Below, piece by piece: positions 3,938-38,975 of a stretch of DNA of 64,000 nucleotides. The stretch covers positions 1-64,000 of the IMG/VR virus record IMGVR_UViG_3300044960_000029; one strand, written 5' to 3'. Under the pieces are notes generated by a model. That model was not told the DNA's origin. It saw nothing but the letters and a program-made list of their open reading frames with translations, and searched no databases. The translations under genes were made by a program, and so were the position numbers. The DNA comes from a virus. Positions within the stretch are counted from its first letter, which is position 1. The number at the start of each line of letters is the position of its first letter.

Positions 3938-4927
3938 ATGAATGAAGACATCACAATAATTAAACCCAAAAAAATTCGTTTAGATATGACATCTTTTTGT
4001 CAATTAAAATGTCCATCATGTCCAATGACATATCTACCAACAAAAGAAAAAACTGGTTATGTTCATATAGAACAATTTAAAGACTTAATTGATAAAAACC
4101 CATGGATAAAAAGTATTGAATTAGCTAATCATGGAGAAGTTTTTCTAAACCCAGATTTATTAGAAATTTTCAAATATTCATTCGAAAAAAATGTTGAATT
4201 GACTATCGATGTTGGTGTTAATCTAAATAATGTTAAATTAAATGTCTTAGAGGGTTTAGTAAAATATAGAATTAAAAGTATGAAAATTTCTATAGATGGT
4301 GCTAGCCAAAAAACCTATGAGCAATATAGAATAGGTGGAAATTTTCAAACTGTAATGAATAATATTGATAAAATTAACGAATTTAAAAAGATTTATGATT
4401 CATCATATCCATATTTAAAATGGACATTTATAGTATTTGGTCACAATGAACATGAAATACCATTAGCACGAAAAATAGCAAAAGATAAAAATATGCAATT
4501 TGAAACAAAATTAAATTGGGATGATAATTTTTCTCCAATCAAAAATATAGATTTTGTAAAAAAAGAAACTAATTTTAAATATACAAATGTAAAAGATCAT
4601 TTAAAAAATAATGAAAATATAAGTTATCTTTCTACAATGTGTAATAACATGTGGATATCACCACAAATTAATACAGATGGAGAAGTATTTGGATGTTGTA
4701 GATTTTTAAGAATTCCATTTGGTGGAAATGCATTTACAGATGGATTAATGAATGTCATTAATAGTGAAAAAATACAAAAGGCAAGATTAATGTTAACAGG
4801 TCAAATTGAAGATACCAATGATAATATGTGCTCACATTGTTTTATATATCAAGATATGAAAAAAACTGGAAAATATATTCCAATTGAAACAATTAAAGAA
4901 CTAATTAAAAAATATAATTACAATTGA
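3938..4927 (+). CDS. Radical SAM / SPASM-domain protein
   Basis: The 329-residue protein starts with a radical SAM core: LDMTSFCQLKCPSCPM holds C21, C25 and C28, followed by ELANHGEVFLNP and MKISIDGASQKTYEQYR, both usual in this family. The C-terminal third has an auxiliary-cluster (SPASM-like) cysteine pattern: CNNMW, then GEVFGCCRF, then NMCSHC. SPASM enzymes often modify peptides or proteins, or act in sugar and cofactor pathways; no substrate can be read here. It lies convergent to the pseudogene at 4918-5174 and divergent from the other radical SAM genes, with its own TATAAATA promoter. Class call firm, function unknown. Confidence 0.85.
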   Translation: MNEDITIIKPKKIRLDMTSFCQLKCPSCPMTYLPTKEKTGYVHIEQFKDLIDKNPWIKSIELANHGEVFLNPDLLEIFKYSFEKNVELTIDVGVNLNNVKLNVLEGLVKYRIKSMKISIDGASQKTYEQYRIGGNFQTVMNNIDKINEFKKIYDSSYPYLKWTFIVFGHNEHEIPLARKIAKDKNMQFETKLNWDDNFSPIKNIDFVKKETNFKYTNVKDHLKNNENISYLSTMCNNMWISPQINTDGEVFGCCRFLRIPFGGNAFTDGLMNVINSEKIQKARLMLTGQIEDTNDNMCSHCFIYQDMKKTGKYIPIETIKELIKKYNYN

Positions 4928-25225: not shown

Positions 25226-28123
25226 TTATGTTTCTTCACCAGTTGGTAAATTTTCTAGTTCTGATTGTTCTTCTTCAGATGGTGGTGTTTCTTCACCAGT
25301 CGGTAAATTTTCTAGTTCTGATTGTTCTTCTTCAGATGGCGGTGTTTCTTCACCAGTTGGTAAATTTTCTAGTTCTCCAGATAATGACTTATCTAATTCT
25401 GAATCTGAAGGATTTCCTTCAGATTGAGATTGTTTTATATTATCCTCAACAGATTTGTTTATTTCTTCTATTTTATCAGGTGATTCATAATAATATGGAT
25501 TATAAATTTGTTGTAAATCATCAACACCTTTATTATCTGATATTCCACGTTCTTGTTTTAACATAGCTTCGTTCATTTGAATATCATCTTCGGTAAATCC
25601 TAAATAACGTTTCAATATAAATCTACGTGATAGATATTTTATTTGTTCTGCAGAGTTATAAGTATTAATCAATTCAGCATCTAAAGCTGCTTGTCTATAT
25701 AATGCAAAGTTTTGTGGATCTGGTAATTTTAATAAAAATAACTCATTATCAACTTTAATATCTGATGATTTAAGAAATAATTTAAACTCTTGATCTAGAA
25801 CTCGTTCTATTTTATTTTGTAATCTTTTTATATAATTTGCAAAACGTAGTTCTTCTATATATGCAATACCAACTTTTCCATCAGCTATTTGTGCACCTTG
25901 TGCATCAGAACCCCTCATATATGAAGTTGGAATTCGTAAACCCCTAAATATCTTTTCTTGAAAATATTTAACATCTGCAGATTCACCTAAATTTTCACCA
26001 CCTGGTAAAGTTTCAACTCTTGAACCTCTACCAGAAGATGTTACAGGAAAATAGTAATCTTCCTGAATAGAGTTCTTTGTAAATACACCACATTCTGTCG
26101 CAAATGTATGATAATTATGAATACTTTCACCAATGGTGATACAACCAACATCCATCTTTTCTTTAAGATATTCTATTTTTACAATTTTGTGATTATGATT
26201 AATTAAATTATATTTTAATTGAGAAAATGTTTTAACATTTAAATAATCTTTAATAACTTCTAAATACGTCCAACTTGGTATTGATCTTCTTCCTGTTTTT
26301 GATGGTTTATTTATATTCTTAAATTCATATAAAAAATTATCATTTGTTTTCATCCAATTCAATAAATCGGTTCTTCTAATAGAATAATCATTTTTAATCT
26401 TATCTATTAATAATGAAATAATTTTTTGAGAAACTAATAAACGTTGAGATAAATCATTTTGTCTTTTTGAATTTCTTCTATTTAATTTTAATTTTCCTTT
26501 TTTTCTATTTGTTTCTTTAATAGAATTTATACGTTTAATATCACTTTCAAATCTTGAATTAAAATTAAAAATAATATCGTTATAATAAGTTTGAAGTCCA
26601 CTTATAAGTTTTTCTATTTGATATAATTTTTTATCATTATTCCAAGAATTAAAACGTTCTTTATTAAAATCTGCATGATATTTAAAATGATCTTTTACAC
26701 CCATTAATATTAAATTATTTGGTGTATTATCATGTTTATTAAAATTTTTATGATGGACAACAACTTTATCTTCATTAACATATTTTTTATCATATGAAAA
26801 TTCTTCTAATTTAATATTATTTGAAACCATCTTATGTGTTTTAATCCATTCCTTTTTAGAAATATCAAAAATTTCTTCATAACCAGAAGAAAATGGTAAT
26901 GATTGAATATTATTAACATCAACCCATCTTCTATTAAAAGGAATTAAACTATTTTCTTTAATTAATTCATCAGCTCTTACAAAACCTAAACCTTGTACTG
27001 GAAATTTATGATCTGGTGTACAAATAATAGATTTACCATTATCAAATGTTATTTTTAAAACATCTGCATTTTTTCTAGTAACACCTGCCCAAATAATTTC
27101 ACCTGGTTTAATTTCACCTGTCAATGGATCACATGAATATACATAATTAATTTTACCTGATTCATATTCTTTAGCCAATTCATGAATTGTTAATATTCTT
27201 CCATCTAATAATGGAATTCTTGTATTCATGTCAAGACATGCAGGATTATAAGTACCATCTACAACATCACCTTGTGGATTTGGCATTCTTTTTTGTCTTA
27301 CATCATTTTTAACTTGTTCAAGATATTGTTTAACACGCTGAGCTGGCATATTACCAACATCTATATAAAATACTCTTCTTTCTGGTGCTCTTACAATACG
27401 ATAGATGACCATCGCATCTTCTAACATTGAAAGTTGTTTATATGTCTTGAGAACTGGTAATAAAATACTATCACCAAATGGGGCAGCCGGTCCCATCATA
27501 TCTGTCAATGAAAAATGAATTATATGTTCTGCAGGTATTATTTCAATATTTTGATTTTTTTGACCATGTGTTAATGATGGTGTGTTTGACATCCTTGAAA
27601 TATGATATGCTATTTTTTGCCCTTTACTGTTTACTTCTATACCTATAACTGATGACGGATCAATATATTCCCATGTTTTAAATGCATTTACCCGTTTAAA
27701 AAAACAATCACCATATTTAACAGTCGTACGAGCTATACTAAAAATTCTTGATTTAAGATCTTGTAAATTACTCCAAAAACGAACTGCAGCTCTTATAGTT
27801 GTTACAATATTTTCATTAATTTCTTGATTATCTTCATTTTGATAATCAATAACAAATGGTAAATGTGTTTTATTATCTTCTGTTCCTATTTCTTCTGCTA
27901 TGGTATCTAATGCTCTTGAAATATCAATATCAGTATCCATTAAATCAAATTGTCTATATTTTTGCATTCGTGATCCAACACCACGCATAACTTGATTATA
28001 CCAAGAAACAGCTGATACTTCAGCCCCAACACCAAAATAATCACTATCCGTTTTAAGAACACTAGGAATATTAACTTTCTTTTCTGGTTTAATTATTCTC
28101 CAATAATTTATCCATGATCCCAT
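25226..28123 (-). CDS. gp20: Portal protein, T4 gp20 family, interrupted by an intein
   Basis: 965 residues as translated. Residues 1-295 and 685-965 form the portal (576 residues when joined; T4 gp20 is 524): MVIYRIVRAPERRVFYIDVGN, VVDGTYNPA and the resumed EDYYFPVTSSGRGSRVETLP are highly characteristic. The portal is the dodecameric DNA gate at one head vertex. The intein sits between NPA and S685, within the highly conserved NP-A-S-I-QEDYYFP stretch, the usual kind of insertion site. The C-terminus carries three acidic 19-residue repeats. AAAGGAA precedes the ATG, and the gene follows the tape-measure-like gene by 17 bases. Confidence 0.93.
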   Translation of the reverse strand: MGSWINYWRIIKPEKKVNIPSVLKTDSDYFGVGAEVSAVSWYNQVMRGVGSRMQKYRQFDLMDTDIDISRALDTIAEEIGTEDNKTHLPFVIDYQNEDNQEINENIVTTIRAAVRFWSNLQDLKSRIFSIARTTVKYGDCFFKRVNAFKTWEYIDPSSVIGIEVNSKGQKIAYHISRMSNTPSLTHGQKNQNIEIIPAEHIIHFSLTDMMGPAAPFGDSILLPVLKTYKQLSMLEDAMVIYRIVRAPERRVFYIDVGNMPAQRVKQYLEQVKNDVRQKRMPNPQGDVVDGTYNPACLDMNTRIPLLDGRILTIHELAKEYESGKINYVYSCDPLTGEIKPGEIIWAGVTRKNADVLKITFDNGKSIICTPDHKFPVQGLGFVRADELIKENSLIPFNRRWVDVNNIQSLPFSSGYEEIFDISKKEWIKTHKMVSNNIKLEEFSYDKKYVNEDKVVVHHKNFNKHDNTPNNLILMGVKDHFKYHADFNKERFNSWNNDKKLYQIEKLISGLQTYYNDIIFNFNSRFESDIKRINSIKETNRKKGKLKLNRRNSKRQNDLSQRLLVSQKIISLLIDKIKNDYSIRRTDLLNWMKTNDNFLYEFKNINKPSKTGRRSIPSWTYLEVIKDYLNVKTFSQLKYNLINHNHKIVKIEYLKEKMDVGCITIGESIHNYHTFATECGVFTKNSIQEDYYFPVTSSGRGSRVETLPGGENLGESADVKYFQEKIFRGLRIPTSYMRGSDAQGAQIADGKVGIAYIEELRFANYIKRLQNKIERVLDQEFKLFLKSSDIKVDNELFLLKLPDPQNFALYRQAALDAELINTYNSAEQIKYLSRRFILKRYLGFTEDDIQMNEAMLKQERGISDNKGVDDLQQIYNPYYYESPDKIEEINKSVEDNIKQSQSEGNPSDSELDKSLSGELENLPTGEETPPSEEEQSELENLPTGEETPPSEEEQSELENLPTGEET
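25229..25390 (-). repeat. Three tandem 57-base repeats at the portal C-terminus
   Basis: Each unit encodes LENLPTGEETPPSEEEQSE; the third is cut short by the stop codon. Units differ by only a few silent changes, so the expansion is recent. Confidence 0.88.
26072..27238 (-). mobile_element. Intein with HNH homing endonuclease in the portal gene
   Basis: 389 residues, portal positions 296-684. Block A CLDMNTRIPLLDG has Cys at position 1, block B IICTPDHKF has the T-x2-H motif, block F is DVGCITIGESIHNYHTFA, and block G ends GVFTKN before the +1 Ser. The centre has an HNH core (VVVHHKNFNKHDNTPNNLIL). The residue before the terminal Asn is Lys rather than the usual His. The element should splice itself out of the protein and can home into empty portal genes. 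Confidence 0.92.
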
Positions 28124-30848: not shown

Positions 30849-30878
30849 ATCTATACAATATTTAGGAGAATGACAAAT

Positions 30879-31661
30879 ATGAATAATCCACTTTTAGAAA
30901 AACTTAAGTTACCAGGAAGAATATTTCAATTACCATCTAGGGGATATCTATATATAAATAATGAATTAAGTTCATCTGTTCAAAATGCAGAAATCCACGT
31001 TCACCCAATGTCTGCATTAGATGAAATTTCAATGAAAAACCCAGATTTATTATTTAGTGGTAAAGCAACAGATGAAGTATTTAAATCATGTATCCCGGAT
31101 ATTATTAAACCATTAGAATTATATGGAAGAGATGTTGATGCAATTACATTATTTTTAAGAATAGTATCTTATGGTCCAATTTATACAGATGAGTTCATTC
31201 ATACATGTAAAGATGCAAAAAAACATACATATAATATTAATGTTGAGGATTTCGTAAGTAAAATAAAATATTTAGATCCAACTATGATAAATGATCTTTA
31301 TACATTAACATTAGATAATGGTCAAATTGTGAAATTACAACCATTAAGATATAAACATGTAATAGAAATTTTACAAAAAAATCAAAATAAAAAGGAATTA
31401 ACGGCTGATGATATTAAATCAAATCTAATGATTAATCTTTTAAATTTAATTGTTTCTATTGATGGTATATCTGATAAACAATTAATAACAGAATGGATAA
31501 AGAAAGCACCTACATCATATATTAATAAAATTGCAGTCAAAGTGGAATCTTCATCTGATGCATGGGGATGTGATTTCGTTACTGAATTGACGTGTAAAGA
31601 TTGCAATGAAAAATTTAAAGTAGAAATTCCTATTAACCCAGTAAATTTTTTCACAGAATGA
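30879..31661 (+). CDS. gp26: Baseplate hub assembly protein, gp26-like
   Basis: The start is set at the ATG at 30879 because TTTAGGAG sits ten bases ahead; the earlier ATG at 30870 is directly against that site. The 260-residue product has LPGRIFQLPSRGYLYINNEL, IHVHPMSALDEISMKNPDLL, IPDIIKPLELYGRDVDAITL and a C-terminal zinc-finger-like CKDCNEKF, all of which fit the T4-like hub protein gp26. Such proteins serve assembly of the central baseplate hub around gp27 and gp5. It overlaps the next gene by four bases. Confidence 0.75.
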   Translation: MNNPLLEKLKLPGRIFQLPSRGYLYINNELSSSVQNAEIHVHPMSALDEISMKNPDLLFSGKATDEVFKSCIPDIIKPLELYGRDVDAITLFLRIVSYGPIYTDEFIHTCKDAKKHTYNINVEDFVSKIKYLDPTMINDLYTLTLDNGQIVKLQPLRYKHVIEILQKNQNKKELTADDIKSNLMINLLNLIVSIDGISDKQLITEWIKKAPTSYINKIAVKVESSSDAWGCDFVTELTCKDCNEKFKVEIPINPVNFFTE

Positions 31662-31882
31662 TCCATATTGGAAATTTGGATGAAATAAGCAAATTAATAG
31701 AAATATTAGGAAATCAAATAAGAATGATAATAAGAAATGCAATAGAATTATCATATTATTCTAGAGGTGCATGGACATATTATGATGTATTAAATATGTC
31801 AGCTGCAGAAAGAGAAATAGCTACAGAGTTTATAACAAAAAGATTAGAACAAGCATCAAAGATGACATTTCCAGTATTTTAA
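31658..31882 (+). CDS. Small hub-associated protein, conserved in T4-like phages (74 aa)
   Basis: 74 residues: IGNQIRMIIRNAIELSYYSRGAW in two adjoining parts, then AEREIATEFITKRLEQA and a closing MTFPVF. The Y/M-R-G-(A/S/G)-x-(T/S/W) core and the final T-x-(P)-(V/F)-(F/Y) are shared with short proteins coded next to hub genes in many T4-like phages. It overlaps gp26 (ATGA junction), so the two are translationally coupled. Function is unknown; an assembly-chaperone role is plausible by context. Confidence 0.6.
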   Translation: MIHIGNLDEISKLIEILGNQIRMIIRNAIELSYYSRGAWTYYDVLNMSAAEREIATEFITKRLEQASKMTFPVF

Positions 31883-31934
31883 TAAAGGATCTGATCCCGG
31901 AATTCTAACCATCTTACAAGGGATTATATAAAAT

Positions 31935-32690
31935 AAGTGGGATTAATTATTATATAATTAATCCCATTTTTATTTTTTTTTTTTTCAATAAAGAAGAGTT
32001 ATTTTTTGTCAATATCCGTATTCCGGACATTTCTTTCACCAGAAAGACAACTACATATTAGTAAACGTTACGTATTACGTAACGTTTACATCCGAATTTG
32101 GTTGAAACCAAATTCGGATTAACTTGTAAGTAGTTATTTTGTTAATTGGAATATATGTCAAATGTTATGAGAGCGTTCTATTTTCCGGACACATTTGCGC
32201 CTTGTCGGCGCGTCGAAAATGTTCAATTGAACACTCTAACTTCATACTCAGACCTGCCCAGGTTACGCTTTACCAGGTAGACTTTCGGCCTATATTATAT
32301 GTATAATCGTCACCTACTCGTCTTCGTATGTTCCGCATTCGTAGACGCTTTCCCGTATATAAAATAAGTTAGAATTTTATATACGCTATTGGCCATTGCA
32401 GACCAATATCTGGGAATTCATTTTAGTAATTTCATGAATGGCGATTAAGCATATCATGAAATGGTTTATACTATTAAGTCAGTTCTGGAGGAGGTTTTTA
32501 TACTGACTGGTTCCATCGGCCTTCCTGAGGACATTTCGAAGACGCTATTAATTGATGACCACTGTGCCCGATCACAAATAGGAACCACCTCTCTATGCAG
32601 CGCTCTCCTCAAGTAAGATGCATAGATGCAACTATAAAATATAAACCACTTTTATAGTCGCTAAGCCGTTTGCTATACGACTTTTCCCTA
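31935..32690 (-). ncRNA. Large structured non-coding RNA of unknown family (about 750 nt)
   Basis: No open frame of note, G+C visibly above the flanks, and dense nested hairpins. Main helices (plus coordinates): 32012-32018/32024-32030; 32032-32037/32042-32047; a three-way junction closed by 32049-32054/32130-32135 with perfect 12-bp (32061-32072/32078-32089) and 13-bp (32090-32102/32107-32119) arms; 32171-32178/32229-32236; 32180-32185/32215-32220; 32197-32201/32207-32211; 32354-32364/32375-32385; 32387-32394/32401-32408; 32429-32437/32454-32462; 32477-32483/32502-32508; 32508-32519/32568-32572 with 32581-32587; 32592-32599/32619-32626; 32656-32660/32678-32682. Three of these helices need G-U pairs available only on the minus strand, where the plus strand would have A-C mismatches. 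A TATAAT at 32690-32695 sits just before the first hairpin. Confidence 0.75.
31939..31980 (+). terminator. Strong terminator after the gp26 unit (possibly bidirectional)
   Basis: A 12-base-pair perfect stem: arms 31939-31950 and 31954-31965, loop of three bases, then a long T-run on plus. On the minus strand the same hairpin is followed by ACTTATTTT and may close the large RNA. Confidence 0.9.
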
Positions 32691-32695
32691 TTATA
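32690..32695 (-). promoter_or_regulatory. -10-like element before the structured RNA
   Basis: TATAAT on minus, followed by AGGGAAAAG and then the first hairpin. No good -35 is visible, so another factor or a weak promoter is possible. Confidence 0.35.
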
Positions 32696-32699
32696 TATA

Positions 32700-32958
32700 A
32701 AAATATACATGAGGATGATTATTAAAAATAAAATTATATATAAAATTTAATTAAAAAATAACTAAATGATTTATTTAAACAAAAGAAAAATGAACGTTAT
32801 AAAAACAGATTAATAAAAACACAATAAACAATATCTAAATAAATTTTATAAAAGAGACACTATATATTATTAAAAATAAATTAAAACAACAAATTCAATA
32901 ATATTTATTATAATACATTTTATAGTTATAAACAAATTCTAAAAATAAACTTATCAAT
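32700..32958. other. Gene-free AT-rich stretch
   Basis: A run of about 260 bases, almost all A and T, between the structured RNA and the 32959 gene. No open frame, repeat family or clear hairpin is seen. Promoters for the RNA could lie here; nothing definite can be assigned. Confidence 0.5.
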
Positions 32959-33291
32959 TTAATTTATTATTTTTTTTAATTTTTCCTTTAATTTTTGATA
33001 AATGTTTCTTTCACTTGTTGGTAAAAGTTTAATTGTTCCTAAAGAAATATCATGATATTCGTAAAATTCTTTTTCTTTTTGTTGATCTATAGGTAAACCC
33101 ATAGCAATATTATATTCATAATCACTGACAGCTTTTTTATCAACATTATTTTTAATTCTTTTTATTTTTTTTCTATTTTTCGTATTTTCTATGTATTCAA
33201 CTTTTTTATGTTCTATGTTTTGGTCTTTACATAAACGTTGTGTAAAAGTATATGCTAATTTTCTCATTTCTTTTGCTTTTTTTCCATTCAT
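32959..33291 (-). CDS. Hypothetical basic protein (about 110 aa)
   Basis: The start is placed at the ATG at 33291 (MNGKKAKEMRKLAYTF), with AAAGGAAATAGAG in front; an earlier ATG at 33324 overlaps the upstream stop but has no ribosome site. The protein is rich in Lys and Asn, with NTKNRKKIKRIKNNVDKKA and a closing ERNIYQKLKEKLKKII. The KKAKEMRKLA start recurs in small T4-like phage proteins of unknown role. It lies at the end of a minus-strand run with nuclease and recombination genes. Confidence 0.55.
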   Translation of the reverse strand: MNGKKAKEMRKLAYTFTQRLCKDQNIEHKKVEYIENTKNRKKIKRIKNNVDKKAVSDYEYNIAMGLPIDQQKEKEFYEYHDISLGTIKLLPTSERNIYQKLKEKLKKIIN

Positions 33292-33307
33292 ATTCTCTAT
33301 TTCCTTT

Positions 33308-33949
33308 CTATATAATTCCAACATATCTAGGATTTAAATCAGCATCTAACCAATCTATAATATAATTCATATTATTTTTAAATAATAAAACTTCAAATTT
33401 GTTTATACTTGGTACACCAGTTTTTGATAATTTTTGTTTTAAAATTAAATACTTATATTGTTTTGGTTTAAAATTTTCAACATACACAGGTTTTAAACCA
33501 TATAGATTTATTTTATAAACATTACTTATCTCAAACTTACTTTGTTTTAATTTTTGCCATTCTTTTTTATCAAATTCTTCAATTTCAAATTGTTCTTTTT
33601 GAAATTGAATCGAATGATGTGTAGAATGATGTGGTATTGGCAACTGTTTTTTTCCTTTATATCGTTCACAAAAACGAATAGCAGAATTGATCATCGCATT
33701 TACATTTAATTCATTAATATCTTTTGGTATATTTTTAATACCTATTGTATCTATTATTTGTTGTCTAGTTGGTGGAATATATGGTAAATTAATACTTATA
33801 CGTTTTGCATTATATGGTGAAATAGTTTTTTCTATTTTTGAATAGAAATTTAAATATTTGTGAATAGTTATCAAAATGTCATCATATGATTCACCATCGA
33901 ATCTTAACGCATCAAATCGAACGTCTGGAATAGGTAAATGATCATACAT
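33308..33949 (-). CDS. Hypothetical protein (213 aa)
   Basis: Begins MYDHLPIPDVRFDALRFDG and contains LPYIPPTRQQIIDTIGIKN, IPHHSTHHSIQFQ and VLLFKNNMNYIIDWLDADL. No family is recognised. The composition matches its neighbours, and it lies between the basic protein and the PD-(D/E)XK gene on the same strand, so it probably belongs to the replication/recombination transcript. The His-rich loop could bind metal, which is a guess. Confidence 0.55.
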   Translation of the reverse strand: MYDHLPIPDVRFDALRFDGESYDDILITIHKYLNFYSKIEKTISPYNAKRISINLPYIPPTRQQIIDTIGIKNIPKDINELNVNAMINSAIRFCERYKGKKQLPIPHHSTHHSIQFQKEQFEIEEFDKKEWQKLKQSKFEISNVYKINLYGLKPVYVENFKPKQYKYLILKQKLSKTGVPSINKFEVLLFKNNMNYIIDWLDADLNPRYVGII

Positions 33950-34017
33950 AATTTTTTTTATCTTAATAATTTATTAAAAAAAAATAAAGGTGTGATTTTA
34001 TATAAAATGATAGATTT

Positions 34018-34542
34018 TTATATATTTATCCAAAAATTTTTATATTTTAATAGATCATCTAAAAATGTTATTTTTGTATTATCTATTAATGTTATATATT
34101 TTGTTGGAATATCGATATGATTTTCAACGCATACCATTCTTGGTGTATTGTTCCATTTAAAAATTAACATTGGTTCTAAATCTAATTTTTTAGCATTTAT
34201 TCTAGCTTCATCCATCCATTTATATATTGATGATTCTTTATTTAATAAATGATGCACTTTATCTGCATCTTTATATGCTTTAGCTTCAATAACAAATCTA
34301 AATTTTAAATTACATTCTGATTCATTAAGTGGTACGATATCACCAATGAATAATCTTAATGCTTCTTTAGAAAATTTTTGGGCAAGTATTTCAAAATTTT
34401 TACCACCAACAATAGCACCTGAATTTTCTGATTTTCTAAATTTTAGTGGATCTAAATATTCAGATAATAAGTTTGCAATATCTCTTTCGTTACCCAATCC
34501 TTTTCTTTTACTATTAATACTTTTTCTCTTTTTTTCAGTCAT
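34018..34542 (-). CDS. PD-(D/E)XK nuclease, resolvase-like
   Basis: 174 residues. The layout is that of archaeal-type Holliday junction resolvases and related nucleases: SKRKGLGNERDIANLL with an N-terminal Glu, FRKSENSGAIVGG, then GDIV (Asp) and FVIEAKAY (E-x-K). These supply the E, D and E-x-K metal ligands of the fold. It could resolve branched phage DNA before packaging, the job done by gp49 in T4, which is a different fold. It is adjacent to gp46/gp47, which favours a recombination role. Exact substrate unknown. Confidence 0.6.
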   Translation of the reverse strand: MTEKKRKSINSKRKGLGNERDIANLLSEYLDPLKFRKSENSGAIVGGKNFEILAQKFSKEALRLFIGDIVPLNESECNLKFRFVIEAKAYKDADKVHHLLNKESSIYKWMDEARINAKKLDLEPMLIFKWNNTPRMVCVENHIDIPTKYITLIDNTKITFLDDLLKYKNFWINI

Positions 34543-34584
34543 TATATCAAATTATTTTTATATAAAAATATACTAAATTATTTA

Positions 34585-36324
34585 TTAATCTTCATTATAG
34601 ACTATAAAAGAGAATCCATTGTGTTTTTTAATTAATAATTCTCTGTCAAATCTTTCAGACATTTCTGGTCTATGAGAAATAACCCAAATTCCTAATTCTT
34701 CATCTCTAGATTTACGTTTTATTAATTTTATAATAGAATCCACACCTTGACTGTCTAATGATCCACCATCAACTTCATCCATAAATAGTGAATTTATTTT
34801 AAAATGAAGATGATGAAATACATCTCTAAAAGCTAAAGATAATGCTAAGTTTACACGTTTCTTTTCACCACTAGATAAGTTACCAAAATCTAATTCCCTT
34901 CCATATTCTGAGACAGTACAGCTCATATCAGTGTCAAACTTAACAATATGTGGAAATCCTAAAACATTAGTGTATTCATTTATTCTATTATTTAAAAATG
35001 GAATTGTAATACTAATAATTTTTCGTCTAATAAATGAATTTTTATCTGTTAATAATTTAAGTAAAAATTGTTGATGTTCTAATAATTTTTTTAAATTATC
35101 TAATTTTTCATAATCTATTTTGTCAATAGTTTCATTTAATATGGCATTATATGCTTCTATATGTGGGTTTATACCATCTTCTAATTCTTTAATTTTTGTT
35201 TTAAGAATAGCAGCCGATGTTTTAGCATTTGTCATATCTTGTAATGATTTATATGTCAAATTAGATTTGGCTTCTATTAATTCATTTTCTAATAATTTTA
35301 GATTTTCTTCAATTTTTGTTAATTCGTTGGTTTGATCAGAAATTTTAGTCGTTAATGTTTCATACTCTATTGCTAAATTTTCAATTTTTGATTCACTATT
35401 TTCAAATTTTTGTAAACAATATGGGCATCTTGCTTCAGATAAATGAATAATTTCATTTTCTACATCATTAATGCGTTTTTGTTTTGCGTTTAACTCATTA
35501 ATTAATGTTATTTTATTATTTTTTAATTTTGATATGTTCTGATTAAGATTAATTATAGTCAAATGGAGATTTTCCTCTTTTACAAAATCAATATTGTCTA
35601 ATTTTATTATTTCATTTTTGAAATTGTTTAAATTTTCTATTCTTTCTTTATCCCATTTTTCCATTCTATTTTTAGCATCAATTAACCTTTTTTCGTGTGA
35701 TTCTTTATTTTTTTCTTGTATTTTAATTAATGTGTCAGCTGTTTGGATGTCTATTTCAGTTTGCTTAATTAATTCTCTTAATTTAATCGCTTTTTCAGAT
35801 AAAATCGTTATATTAAATAATTCTTCAATTATAGTACGTTGTGCAGATAACGGCATATCAAGAAATGGTAAATCATTTCCAGAAAATATGACAACTCTAC
35901 AAAACAAGTCGTATGATATTCCAATTATATCTAATATTTTTTTATCTACAGCAGAAACACTGTCAGGTGTTATATCTTCACCATCTGCTAAAAGATTTAT
36001 AATATAATTTTCTCCTCTACTTCTATAAATTTCATATTCAATATCGCCTTTAGAAAATAAAAGACGAACTTCCATTTGAGTATTTTTAGTATTGTTTGTT
36101 TTATTAATTAAACGCTCTTTAGAAATATTTGATATTGGTTTATTGAACAATGCATATGATATAGCATTTATAATAGCGGTTTTACCAACGCCATTGGCCC
36201 CACCTGTATCTAAATTATCACCAAGAATTAATGTTGTTCCATCAAATTCTAAATCTAATTCTTGGGTGTTATTTCCAAAAGATAAAAAATTTCTAATTTC
36301 TATTTTTTTAAAAATTAATTTCAT
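34585..36324 (-). CDS. gp46: Recombination nuclease subunit gp46 (Rad50/SbcC-like ATPase)
   Basis: 579 residues: Walker A GANGVGKT (42-49), long coiled coils around a zinc hook CPYC (300-303), the ABC signature LSSGEKKR (about 483-490) and Walker B SLFMDEVD (about 512-519), with a late H-R-P segment. With gp47 it forms the Mre11-Rad50-like complex that resects DNA ends for recombination-dependent replication. The start overlaps the gp47 stop by four bases (ATGA), so the pair is coupled. Length is close to that of T4 gp46 (560). Confidence 0.93.
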   Translation of the reverse strand: MKLIFKKIEIRNFLSFGNNTQELDLEFDGTTLILGDNLDTGGANGVGKTAIINAISYALFNKPISNISKERLINKTNNTKNTQMEVRLLFSKGDIEYEIYRSRGENYIINLLADGEDITPDSVSAVDKKILDIIGISYDLFCRVVIFSGNDLPFLDMPLSAQRTIIEELFNITILSEKAIKLRELIKQTEIDIQTADTLIKIQEKNKESHEKRLIDAKNRMEKWDKERIENLNNFKNEIIKLDNIDFVKEENLHLTIINLNQNISKLKNNKITLINELNAKQKRINDVENEIIHLSEARCPYCLQKFENSESKIENLAIEYETLTTKISDQTNELTKIEENLKLLENELIEAKSNLTYKSLQDMTNAKTSAAILKTKIKELEDGINPHIEAYNAILNETIDKIDYEKLDNLKKLLEHQQFLLKLLTDKNSFIRRKIISITIPFLNNRINEYTNVLGFPHIVKFDTDMSCTVSEYGRELDFGNLSSGEKKRVNLALSLAFRDVFHHLHFKINSLFMDEVDGGSLDSQGVDSIIKLIKRKSRDEELGIWVISHRPEMSERFDRELLIKKHNGFSFIVYNED

Positions 36325-37349
36325 AATTTTTTATATATTTCAATTAACGTGTTTGATGATATTGTTGTCGTATCAGTAACTTTTGTCAATAATGTTTCTA
36401 CCATTTCATCTATATTAGAAATATTAATATCAATATTATTATCACCTTCTAATGCTTCTTTTTTCTCTTCTATATTTTCTTCTATTATAAATTCTCTTAG
36501 GTTATACGTTTTTAAAAATTCTTCTTTTAATATTTGTGCTTCATTATATGTAATATCTAAATCTAATGTACAACGAATACGAGAATTTTTACGAGGAACC
36601 CATTCACCATTAATAATCTTTTTTAAACTAGTTTTAAAATATCCTGGACAATTTTCCCAATTTATAAAATTTATATTTGTTTTTTCTACATCTAATATAG
36701 CCATCCCACGGTCTAAATCACCAGCGTCTCCAAAATCCATAGGAAATGTATTGCCTATATAGATAACGTTATCTCGTATTTGACGTTTATGAAAATGACC
36801 AGATATAATCAAATTTTGGTCTTTAAATAAAGTATGATCAGGACCATGTTCCATTTTATTAAAACTTCCAGTAACAATAAATCCTTTAAATTCAAAATGT
36901 CCTAACCATATAGGAATATTTTTATATTCTACTAAAGTTGGGTATTCATGTTTAAACAAGTATGGGCAAAATAAAATATTATCTATTACTGTTGGTTCGG
37001 ATATAATTATAAAATTTTCTAAATTTTTAAAAACTTCAGCTGAATGAATTTTTCTTGATGTTCTATGATATAGGTCATGGTTGCCAATAATATGAATAAT
37101 AGGAAGTCCCAATGAATCTAATTTTGTTAAACCAATATGAGCATAGTTCAAAGTTAACACATTAATGGCAGATCTACTTTCAAATAGGTCACCAAGAAAT
37201 GCTATATGTGTTATATCTTTATCTTTTTTAACTTCAGAACAAAAAAATTCAATAAAGTCTAAACAATCTTTATTGTGTTGTTCTAAATTATTCTTTTTAC
37301 CAAAATGTATGTCACTCCAAAGTGCAATTTTTTTAATTTTTGATTGCAA
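36321..37349 (-). CDS. gp47: Recombination nuclease subunit gp47 (Mre11/SbcD-like)
   Basis: 342 residues with the metallophosphoesterase motifs: SDIHFGK (12-18), GDLFESR, GNHD and GHFHKR. It is the nuclease partner of gp46. The start is a TTG at 37349 preceded by AGAGGGTAGAAA; no ATG is near, and the N-terminus QSKIKKIALWSDIH fits the family, so a TTG start is likely. Length matches T4 gp47 (339). Confidence 0.92.
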   Translation of the reverse strand: MQSKIKKIALWSDIHFGKKNNLEQHNKDCLDFIEFFCSEVKKDKDITHIAFLGDLFESRSAINVLTLNYAHIGLTKLDSLGLPIIHIIGNHDLYHRTSRKIHSAEVFKNLENFIIISEPTVIDNILFCPYLFKHEYPTLVEYKNIPIWLGHFEFKGFIVTGSFNKMEHGPDHTLFKDQNLIISGHFHKRQIRDNVIYIGNTFPMDFGDAGDLDRGMAILDVEKTNINFINWENCPGYFKTSLKKIINGEWVPRKNSRIRCTLDLDITYNEAQILKEEFLKTYNLREFIIEENIEEKKEALEGDNNIDINISNIDEMVETLLTKVTDTTTISSNTLIEIYKKL

Positions 37350-38288: not shown

Positions 38289-38975
38289 ATGGAAGAATCA
38301 TTAATTTTTGAAGAACAAGATATACCACCAATGCAAAAAAAGACTGCAACAGTTATTATTGGTCGATTTCAACCGCCACATGCTGGTCATTACAAAGTAA
38401 TACAACATGCATGGAAATTTACTAAAGAAAAAGATTTAGATGCATTAATTTTAGTTATTGTAGATGGTGTTAATACATCTAAAGATAAAAAAACAAATCC
38501 ATTAACATCAGATGAAAGAATTAGATATATTAAAAATTCTGGAAAAGCAAATTGGGTTAAAGATATATTAGTTGCATCAAATGCTTTTGATGCTTTAGTT
38601 AAAGTTAGAGAAGCAGGATATGAACCTATAGCAATTGCTGCCGGTGATGATAGATCAGACAAATATTTGGTAATGCTTGATAAATATTTTTTAGATAATG
38701 ATGGTAAACCAATTAAACATTTTAAAGTTCCAGGATTAGAAAGAAACAAAAGTTCTACACAAAATGATCTTAAAAAATCATCAATACAGAAAGCAATAGA
38801 AAAAATACAGTCAAATGGTGAATTAGATGTTGAAGAAGCATCAGGATCATTAGCAAGAGCTGCAGTAGAACATGGTTTTTTTGATGAGTTCGTTAAAATT
38901 GTAGGTTTAGAAAAAAATTTACCTGCAGCAAAACAAATGTTTAATAAAATTAAAAAGTCATTAAATAATGGATAA
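38289..38975 (+). CDS. Nucleotidyltransferase, HxGH family (NMN adenylyltransferase-like)
   Basis: 228 residues. TATVIIGRFQPPHAGHYKVI holds the phosphate-binding GRFQPPH and HAGH (31-34) motifs of the NMNAT / cytidylyltransferase fold, and PLTSDERIRYI is a second family segment. The usual C-terminal ISST-R motif may be represented by NKSSTQNDLKKSS. The last 60 residues are helical and resemble assembly-type tails. Phages encode NMNAT-like enzymes in NAD salvage, yet this one heads the baseplate operon, so it may work on or in the virion. Substrate unassigned. Confidence 0.72.
   Translation: MEESLIFEEQDIPPMQKKTATVIIGRFQPPHAGHYKVIQHAWKFTKEKDLDALILVIVDGVNTSKDKKTNPLTSDERIRYIKNSGKANWVKDILVASNAFDALVKVREAGYEPIAIAAGDDRSDKYLVMLDKYFLDNDGKPIKHFKVPGLERNKSSTQNDLKKSSIQKAIEKIQSNGELDVEEASGSLARAAVEHGFFDEFVKIVGLEKNLPAAKQMFNKIKKSLNNG

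What the first reader, a model, noticed from the sequence alone, without database searches (positions are those of the whole stretch)
31935..32690. Large ornate non-coding RNA between the tail-hub and recombination genes
A block of about 750 bases with no gene, higher G+C than its flanks and at least fourteen nested helices. The strand can be told from the sequence: in helices 32012-32018/32024-32030, 32171-32178/32229-32236 and 32387-32394/32401-32408 one pair is G-U on minus but A-C on plus. Minus also gives a GACAA loop at 32202-32206, a TATAAT before the first hairpin and a terminator-like stem at the end. Phages are known to carry giant structured RNAs such as GOLLD and ROOL, which form cages; this may be one, a diverged form, or a new family. 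I could not match it to any known RNA by eye.
Basis: partly seen in the sequence, partly recalled or inferred. Interest (0 to 1): 0.93.

Follow-up and report, generated by a model that had tools for sequence, protein, structure and literature searches.

The report
Large pseudoknotted RNA of jumbo phages
A stretch with no gene in a giant bacterial virus encodes a large folded RNA whose shape, but little of whose sequence, is preserved at the same genome position in distantly related giant viruses; its heart matches a poorly known RNA family (EGFOA), and what it does is still unknown.

Summary
The block is by far the longest gene-free gap in the window, raised in G+C, and folds far better than chance on the minus strand (z -11.3). 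All three G-U strand claims check out.

It is a real large RNA. Seven distinct homologues lie at the same spot, between a T4-type baseplate-hub operon and a RusA-like/gp46 operon, in phages whose hub proteins are down to 36% identical. A covariance model built without the window finds it at 88.9 bits (E 1.8e-25). 21 of 37 core pairs show compensatory changes (0 of 500 shuffles reach this).

The centre has two pseudoknots around a hairpin with the near-invariant loop GGUAAAGC-N3-ACCUGGGC. This is the architecture of Rfam EGFOA (RF02955), but the window scores 30.4 bits against a cut-off of 37.7. I call it a new, larger jumbo-phage variant of the EGFOA kind. GOLLD, ROOL, OLE, HEARO and raiA do not match even at E 10. 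Cage formation is untested.

Neighbouring genes converge on it, so it is probably a stand-alone trans-acting RNA.

Side finding: cultured jumbo coliphages (121Q, Munch, GAP32) carry in the same slot, and in 4-5 copies per genome, an unannotated ~550-nt RNA with 49 of 78 pairs covarying and no credible Rfam match.

The parts
31938..32689 (-). whole large RNA (putative transcript; both ends inferred, not measured)
   Evidence: longest non-coding gap, G+C rise, fold z -11.3 on minus, homologues in the same slot; ends from TATAAT/GGG at 32690-32695 and terminator-like stem 31938-31966
32515..32572 (-). 5' domain: helix P0 (32568-32572/32515-32519) enclosing hairpin H0 (32538-32541/32521-32524) with conserved loop AAAUGUCC (32529-32536)
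   Evidence: 7 of 7 H0 stems differ in sequence yet pair 36/36 (swapped partners 106/194); P0 34/34 against 104/168
32410..32414 (-). pseudoknot PK1, 5' strand CCCAG
   Evidence: pairs with 32257-32261 CUGGG; L161 has CCUAG/CUAGG, a compensatory change
   Evidence: 7 different sequences in 7 homologues, 41/42 pairs kept; 6 of 7 pairs with two-sided changes
32355..32384 (-). hairpin H2 (32374-32384/32355-32365), whose loop carries the 5' strand of PK2
   Evidence: 7 versions, 49/49 paired
32366..32373 (-). pseudoknot PK2, 5' strand UCUAACUU in the H2 loop; 3' strand AAGUUAGA at 32235-32242
   Evidence: 4 unrelated versions, 51/51 paired against 54% for swapped partners; found independently by an automated helix search in L165, L275, L005 and L011
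32243..32330 (-). outer stem (32326-32330/32243-32247) enclosing the core hairpin
   Evidence: 3 versions, 35/35 paired; 3' strand starts at +27 from the core as in most EGFOA RNAs
32252..32278 (-). core hairpin: stem 32275-32278/32252-32255, 19-nt near-invariant loop GGUAAAGC-GUA-ACCUGGGC (32256-32274) with the 3' strand of PK1
   Evidence: Rfam EGFOA match 32240-32419 minus, 30.4 bits; same loop in 7 jumbo-phage RNAs and about 15 other EGFOA-type loci
32197..32211 (-). hairpin H6 (32207-32211/32197-32201) with GACAA loop
   Evidence: 5 versions, 40/41 paired
32056..32148 (-). window-specific 3' domain: closing stem with two perfect 13-bp hairpins
   Evidence: weak TD-2 RF03162 hit 41.7 bits (cut-off 48.7), probably two-hairpin resemblance only; not conserved in relatives
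31938..31966 (.). bidirectional terminator-like stem-loop between the RNA and the convergent baseplate operon
30870..31882 (+). flanking convergent genes: T4-type baseplate hub (263 aa) and a 74-aa protein; synteny anchor
   Evidence: PHROG 150 and PF12322; conserved next to the RNA in all homologues
32959..37349 (-). flanking operon: small ORF 121 aa, 213-aa protein, RusA-like/PDDEXK nuclease, gp46-like, gp47-like; synteny anchor

Best explanation
A stand-alone phage gene for a large trans-acting structured RNA (about 750 nt here, about 500-600 nt in relatives), read from the minus strand and ended at a bidirectional terminator. SHOWN by comparison: its centre is a compact fold with two pseudoknots. 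PK1 joins CCCAG to the terminal loop of the core hairpin. PK2 joins the H2 loop to the strand just past the outer stem. Together they frame the near-invariant loop GGUAAAGC-N3-ACCUGGGC. LIKELY: it is homologous to the core of Rfam EGFOA and is a larger jumbo-phage variant of it. INFERRED: it acts in trans, because no same-strand gene lies downstream and the next gene converges on it. LEAST CERTAIN: the conserved loop and joining strands are an active or docking site held by the pseudoknots, and the fast-changing outer hairpins build up a larger particle, alone or with protein, used during infection, in the manner proposed for GOLLD and ROOL.
For: Model R1, trained without the window, finds it at 88.9 bits, E 1.8e-25, with nothing else in 64 kb above 6.3 bits. 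21/37 core pairs change on both sides, 89.4% of cells paired, 0/500 shuffles reach this, slid partners 33-45%. In four relatives over the whole RNA 29/63 pairs covary, 98% paired. PK2 exists in four unrelated sequence versions and PK1 shows CCCAG/CUGGG to CCUAG/CUAGG. Same slot in seven distinct phages. EGFOA match found before any homologue was collected. Convergent downstream gene. In four relatives a hairpin with a T run separates the upstream gene from the RNA.
Against: No transcript data. Rfam cut-off for EGFOA not reached (30.4 against 37.7). No function is known for EGFOA. No sign of self-association was tested. The 3' third of the window RNA is not conserved. Most hub-protein relatives (about 40 loci) and eight named cultured jumbo phages lack this RNA at the slot or in the record, so it is dispensable in the wider group.
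Confidence: 0.55

Rival explanations
1. It is a true member of GOLLD or ROOL, the phage RNAs that form cages.
For: Size, phage origin, several pseudoknots, conserved centre with variable periphery (PMC12286853).
Against: No GOLLD, ROOL or OLE match at E<=10 in the block. No tRNA gene in the window, whereas GOLLD and ROOL often sit near tRNA islands.
Confidence: 0.03
2. It is a cis-acting leader, riboswitch or attenuator for a neighbouring gene.
For: Rfam permissive scan lists a purine-riboswitch-like fragment at its 5' end.
Against: That match is 20.5 bits, E 4.1, with seven broken pairs. The downstream gene is on the opposite strand in the window and relatives; a terminator-like stem lies between.
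Confidence: 0.05
3. It is a catalytic RNA (ribozyme) or the RNA half of a nuclease or mobile-element complex.
For: Strong conservation of unpaired joining strands and loop; compact two-pseudoknot core; EGFOA relatives lie on mobile elements, including one near an ssrA attachment fragment and one on a plasmid with ParA and a recombinase.
Against: No intron, HEARO or other ribozyme model matches; no nuclease gene is consistently adjacent.
Confidence: 0.2
4. It is an antisense or transcription-interference element that limits the convergent baseplate-hub operon.
For: Convergent arrangement and shared terminator.
Against: Would not need a conserved pseudoknotted fold; EGFOA-type relatives have other neighbours.
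Confidence: 0.05
5. The conserved unit is a DNA element (origin or packaging site), not an RNA.
For: Hairpins and raised G+C also occur at origins (inference).
Against: Variable G-U pairs on one strand only, strand-specific conserved loops and pseudoknots.
Confidence: 0.04

Closest known systems
EGFOA RNA (Rfam RF02955)
   Same: Core hairpin with loop GGUAAAGC-N3-ACCUGGGC, upstream CCCAG partner, enclosing outer stem, same order; carried by phages, prophages and plasmids.
   Different: Scores below the Rfam cut-off. Adds hairpin H1, a long H2 and pseudoknot PK2, a 5' domain with an AAAUGUCC loop and variable 3' domains. Lacks the CCGUC-UAG strand of EGFOA. Total about 500-750 nt against a 108-nt Rfam model.
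GOLLD and ROOL RNAs
   Same: Large, phage-borne, pseudoknotted RNAs without known function, with conserved core and variable periphery.
   Different: No covariance-model match; no tRNA gene in the window; multimer formation unknown here.
Unannotated multi-copy RNA of Rak2-type jumbo phages (121Q, Munch, GAP32; seen here, not in Rfam)
   Same: Occupies the same slot beside the baseplate hub, convergent with it; similar size.
   Different: No detectable sequence similarity; 4-5 copies per genome; different consensus structure.

Membership tests
EGFOA (RF02955) | Rfam gathering score 37.7 bits | tested here: not met
   30.4 bits in window; L165 30.4, L275 27.3; none over the cut-off
EGFOA (RF02955) | core hairpin with GGUAAAGC-N3-ACCUGGGC loop | tested here: met
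   32256-32274 minus
EGFOA (RF02955) | CCCAG upstream, able to pair with CUGGG of the loop | tested here: met
   32410-32414; compensatory change in L161
EGFOA (RF02955) | outer stem enclosing the core, 3' strand at about +27 | tested here: met
   32326-32330/32243-32247
EGFOA (RF02955) | CCGUC-UAG strand and short hairpin before the outer stem | tested here: not met
   replaced by H1 and H2 in the jumbo-phage group
GOLLD / ROOL / OLE / HEARO / raiA | match to the family covariance model | tested here: not met
   no match at gathering nor at E<=10 in the block
GOLLD / ROOL | homo-oligomeric cage | not testable with these tools
   needs mass photometry or cryo-EM
GOLLD / ROOL | often near tRNA genes | tested here: not met
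   no tRNA in the window
TD-2 (RF03162) | gathering score 48.7 bits | tested here: not met
   41.7 bits over two perfect hairpins 32056-32148; this part is not conserved in relatives

The most novel reading that the evidence does not exclude
The slot beside the baseplate hub in T4-like jumbo phages is a standing home for giant RNAs. The EGFOA-type RNA of the window clade and the multi-copy RNA of the 121Q/Munch clade are either remote homologues or functional replacements of one another, and both assemble into large RNA-only or RNA-protein particles needed in infection.
Probability: 0.15. Interest if true: 0.9.

Novelty: new variant of a known kind. Interest (0 to 1): 0.64.

Why it matters
EGFOA is a bare Rfam entry without known biology; an open-access text search found no paper that discusses it. 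This work places its core inside a far larger, two-pseudoknot RNA fixed at one spot in jumbo phages, and in prophage or plasmid-borne forms in cultured bacteria (Metabacillus, Lysinibacillus, Brevibacillus), which makes it experimentally reachable. The companion observation of a multi-copy giant RNA in culturable E. coli jumbo phages opens the long-standing question of what giant phage RNAs do to direct genetics in a laboratory host.

Tried and rejected
1) DNA similarity search of the block in named phages: nothing; the same for L011. 2) Genome-collection pattern scan: mostly chance hits in coding DNA; only L115, L144 and L153 kept as real, by stem and pseudoknot checks. 3) Weak R1 hits in L181/L182 lie inside a coding gene: rejected. 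4) 109 stretches matched GGTATGCGTCACTG; apart from the group already known nearly all were chance. 5) T4-type late promoter TATAAATA: not enriched over the whole window but enriched just upstream of genes (8 against 1.0 expected); not found before the RNA. A conserved CATATTC-like motif before the RNA in four relatives is not a general promoter there. 6) The R1 match to EGFOA loci is partly circular, because those loci were chosen by the core pattern; I rely on the Rfam hit made before any selection. 7) Profile search (nhmmer) between the window-type RNA and the 121Q/Munch-type RNA: no similarity. 8) The original EGFOA paper (I believe Weinberg et al. 2017, from memory) is not held, so the meaning of the name and any stated context were not checked.

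Full report
CHECK OF THE OBSERVATION. The block 31935-32690 lies in the longest gene-free gap of the window (31883-32958, 1076 nt). Its G+C is 0.35-0.40 against 0.12-0.28 on both sides. Folded as RNA, the minus strand reaches -233.7 kcal/mol (z -11.3) and the plus strand -205.4 (z -6.2) (20 shuffles each). The TATAAT at 32690-32695 (minus) exists, but sits in an AT-rich stretch and was not listed by the promoter scan. The end stem 31938-31966 is terminator-like in both directions. No shared open frame exists in homologues.

WHAT RNA IT IS. Rfam at curated thresholds finds nothing in the window. A permissive scan of the block gives EGFOA (RF02955) on minus at 32240-32419 with 30.4 bits (cut-off 37.7), and no GOLLD, ROOL, OLE, HEARO or raiA at E<=10. 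The EGFOA alignment showed a near-invariant hairpin loop, GGUAAAGC-N3-ACCUGGGC(A), and an upstream CCCAG. Used as a DNA pattern on 2.9 million viral contigs, this gave 8 hits: the window's own contig, three related phages and four other EGFOA-type loci; two of the latter are over the Rfam cut-off.

SAME PLACE IN DISTANT PHAGES. The related loci carry the RNA in the same slot: baseplate hub and a small gene running towards it, and, upstream on its own strand, a small ORF, a 213-aa protein, a RusA-like nuclease and gp46. Searching by the hub protein gave 51 loci; searching by RNA motifs added L275. In all, seven distinct RNAs were found: window, L165, L275, L005, L163, L011, L161. Hub identity to the window is 51% for most and 36% for L275. 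The window RNA therefore survives where proteins have diverged by half or more. About 40 other hub relatives, and ten jumbo-phage records (eight of them named cultured phages), lack it at that slot or in the whole record.

STRUCTURE BY COMPARISON. Model R1, built from the six others without the window, finds 32240-32416 minus at 88.9 bits, E 1.8e-25; the next best hit in the window scores 6.3 bits. On the seven-sequence alignment 21 of 37 pairs show changes on both sides, 89.4% of cells pair, none of 500 shuffles reaches this, and sliding the partners drops pairing to 33-45%. On four relatives over the whole RNA 29 of 63 pairs show two-sided changes with 98% paired. Hand-placed helices between conserved anchors pair 337/341 in their own sequence, against 1017/1552 with partners from another sequence; the two 5' helices P0 and H0 add 70/70. 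I chose these by eye, so the shuffle tests and R1 carry the weight.

THE CENTRE. Order 5' to 3': P0 enclosing H0 (loop AAAUGUCC); CCCAG; H1; H2; a conserved joining strand around AUGCGUC...AUGCGGA; outer stem; core hairpin; (H4, absent in the window); 3' strand of PK2; H5; H6. PK1 pairs CCCAG with CUGGG in the core loop; L161 has CCUAG/CUAGG. PK2 pairs the H2 loop with the strand after the outer stem in four unrelated versions: UCUAACUU/AAGUUAGA (window), CGUUCUU/AAGAACG (L165), UACUUCUU/AAGAAGUA (L275), UUUGGUU/AACCAAA (the other four). An automated search for the strongest helix around the core recovers PK2 by itself in four sequences, and in most EGFOA loci an outer stem with its 3' strand at +26 to +29 (combined p 4e-4). 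The 3' third of the window RNA, with two perfect hairpins, has no counterpart in relatives.

RELATION TO EGFOA. Shared: loop, PK1, outer stem, order and spacing. Not shared: the CCGUC-UAG strand; and the score stays below Rfam's cut-off in all jumbo-phage members tested. So I call it a variant of the EGFOA kind, not an EGFOA member by Rfam's rule. Other EGFOA-type loci occur in phage contigs, in Metabacillus fastidiosus and Lysinibacillus alkalisoli (80-82 bits) and probably on a Brevibacillus plasmid (a short blastn match). The family is sporadic: 2 of 80 genomes around Metabacillus. The Lysinibacillus copy lies about 3 kb from a tmRNA 3'-end fragment, a typical integration site, so it probably sits on an integrated element. 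No neighbouring gene is constant.

HOW IT PROBABLY WORKS. The next gene downstream is on the opposite strand, a terminator-like stem separates them, and in four relatives a hairpin with a T run cuts the RNA off from the upstream gene. I infer a stand-alone, trans-acting RNA. Conserved unpaired strands held by two pseudoknots suggest a docking or active site; variable outer hairpins suggest an assembled particle. Whether it forms cages like GOLLD (14-mer) and ROOL (8-mer) (PMC12286853) is open; I put that at roughly one in four.

A SECOND GIANT RNA IN THE SAME SLOT. While checking cultured relatives I found that Salmonella phage Munch has an unannotated gap of about 680 nt in the homologous slot. 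That sequence matches 58 phage records at 254 places, usually 4-5 per genome. Munch has five copies and 121Q four, all in gaps between genes apart from one short annotated ORF. RNAalifold on 11 copies from three phages predicts 78 pairs, of which 49 have two-sided changes; 95.7% of cells pair and 0/500 shuffles reach this. Rfam has no credible match. It shows no sequence similarity to the window RNA. I report it as a separate finding that deserves its own study.

CONFIDENCE. Real conserved structured RNA on minus: about 0.97. Homologous to the EGFOA core: about 0.85. Trans-acting: about 0.8. GOLLD/ROOL-like particle: about 0.25.

Noticed in passing
L393:2553-3235 (-), Salmonella phage Munch; also 121Q (KM507819) 326614-327344, 247457-248063, 192836-193316, 90331-90727; Cronobacter phage GAP32: Unannotated ~500-700-nt structured RNA in Rak2-type jumbo phages, 4-5 copies per genome, 254 places in 58 records, 49 of 78 pairs covarying, no credible Rfam match; one copy sits in the same slot as the window RNA.
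   Followed up: partly
L392:4032-4694 (-), Pseudomonas phage PA5oct: The gap beside the baseplate hub also folds far better than shuffles (z -9.1); could be yet another structured RNA. No model matched.
   Followed up: no
L394:3627-3810 (-), Xanthomonas phage XaC1: Profile of the Munch-type RNA matches here (E 2.4e-25), so that family reaches beyond enterobacterial phages.
   Followed up: no
window 25226-28123 (-): T4-like portal protein interrupted by an intein splicing domain (PF14890), followed by a C-terminal three-fold repeat ENLPTGEETPPSEEEQSEL.
   Followed up: partly
L153:1269-1373 (-) and 4506-4523 (+): EGFOA RNA about 3 kb from a tmRNA 3'-end fragment in Lysinibacillus alkalisoli, near ParA and excisionase-like genes: probably on an element integrated at ssrA.
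   Followed up: partly
upstream of genes in the window and in L400-L406: TATAAATA, the T4 late-promoter core, is enriched just upstream of ORFs (8 against 1.0 expected in the window), but absent before the RNA.
   Followed up: partly
upstream of the RNA in L005, L011, L161 and, degenerate, L163: A conserved CAC-CATATTC-like motif right after the upstream terminator; could be the promoter or the 5' end of the RNA.
   Followed up: partly
3' part of the RNA in L005, L163, L011, L165: Conserved ACAAATCCGATAGAAG near the 3' end, only loosely echoed in the window (TTACAAGTTAATCCGAA); role unknown.
   Followed up: no
window 38289-38975 (+): Cytidylyltransferase-like protein (PF01467) between the gp55-like sigma gene and structural genes.
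   Followed up: no
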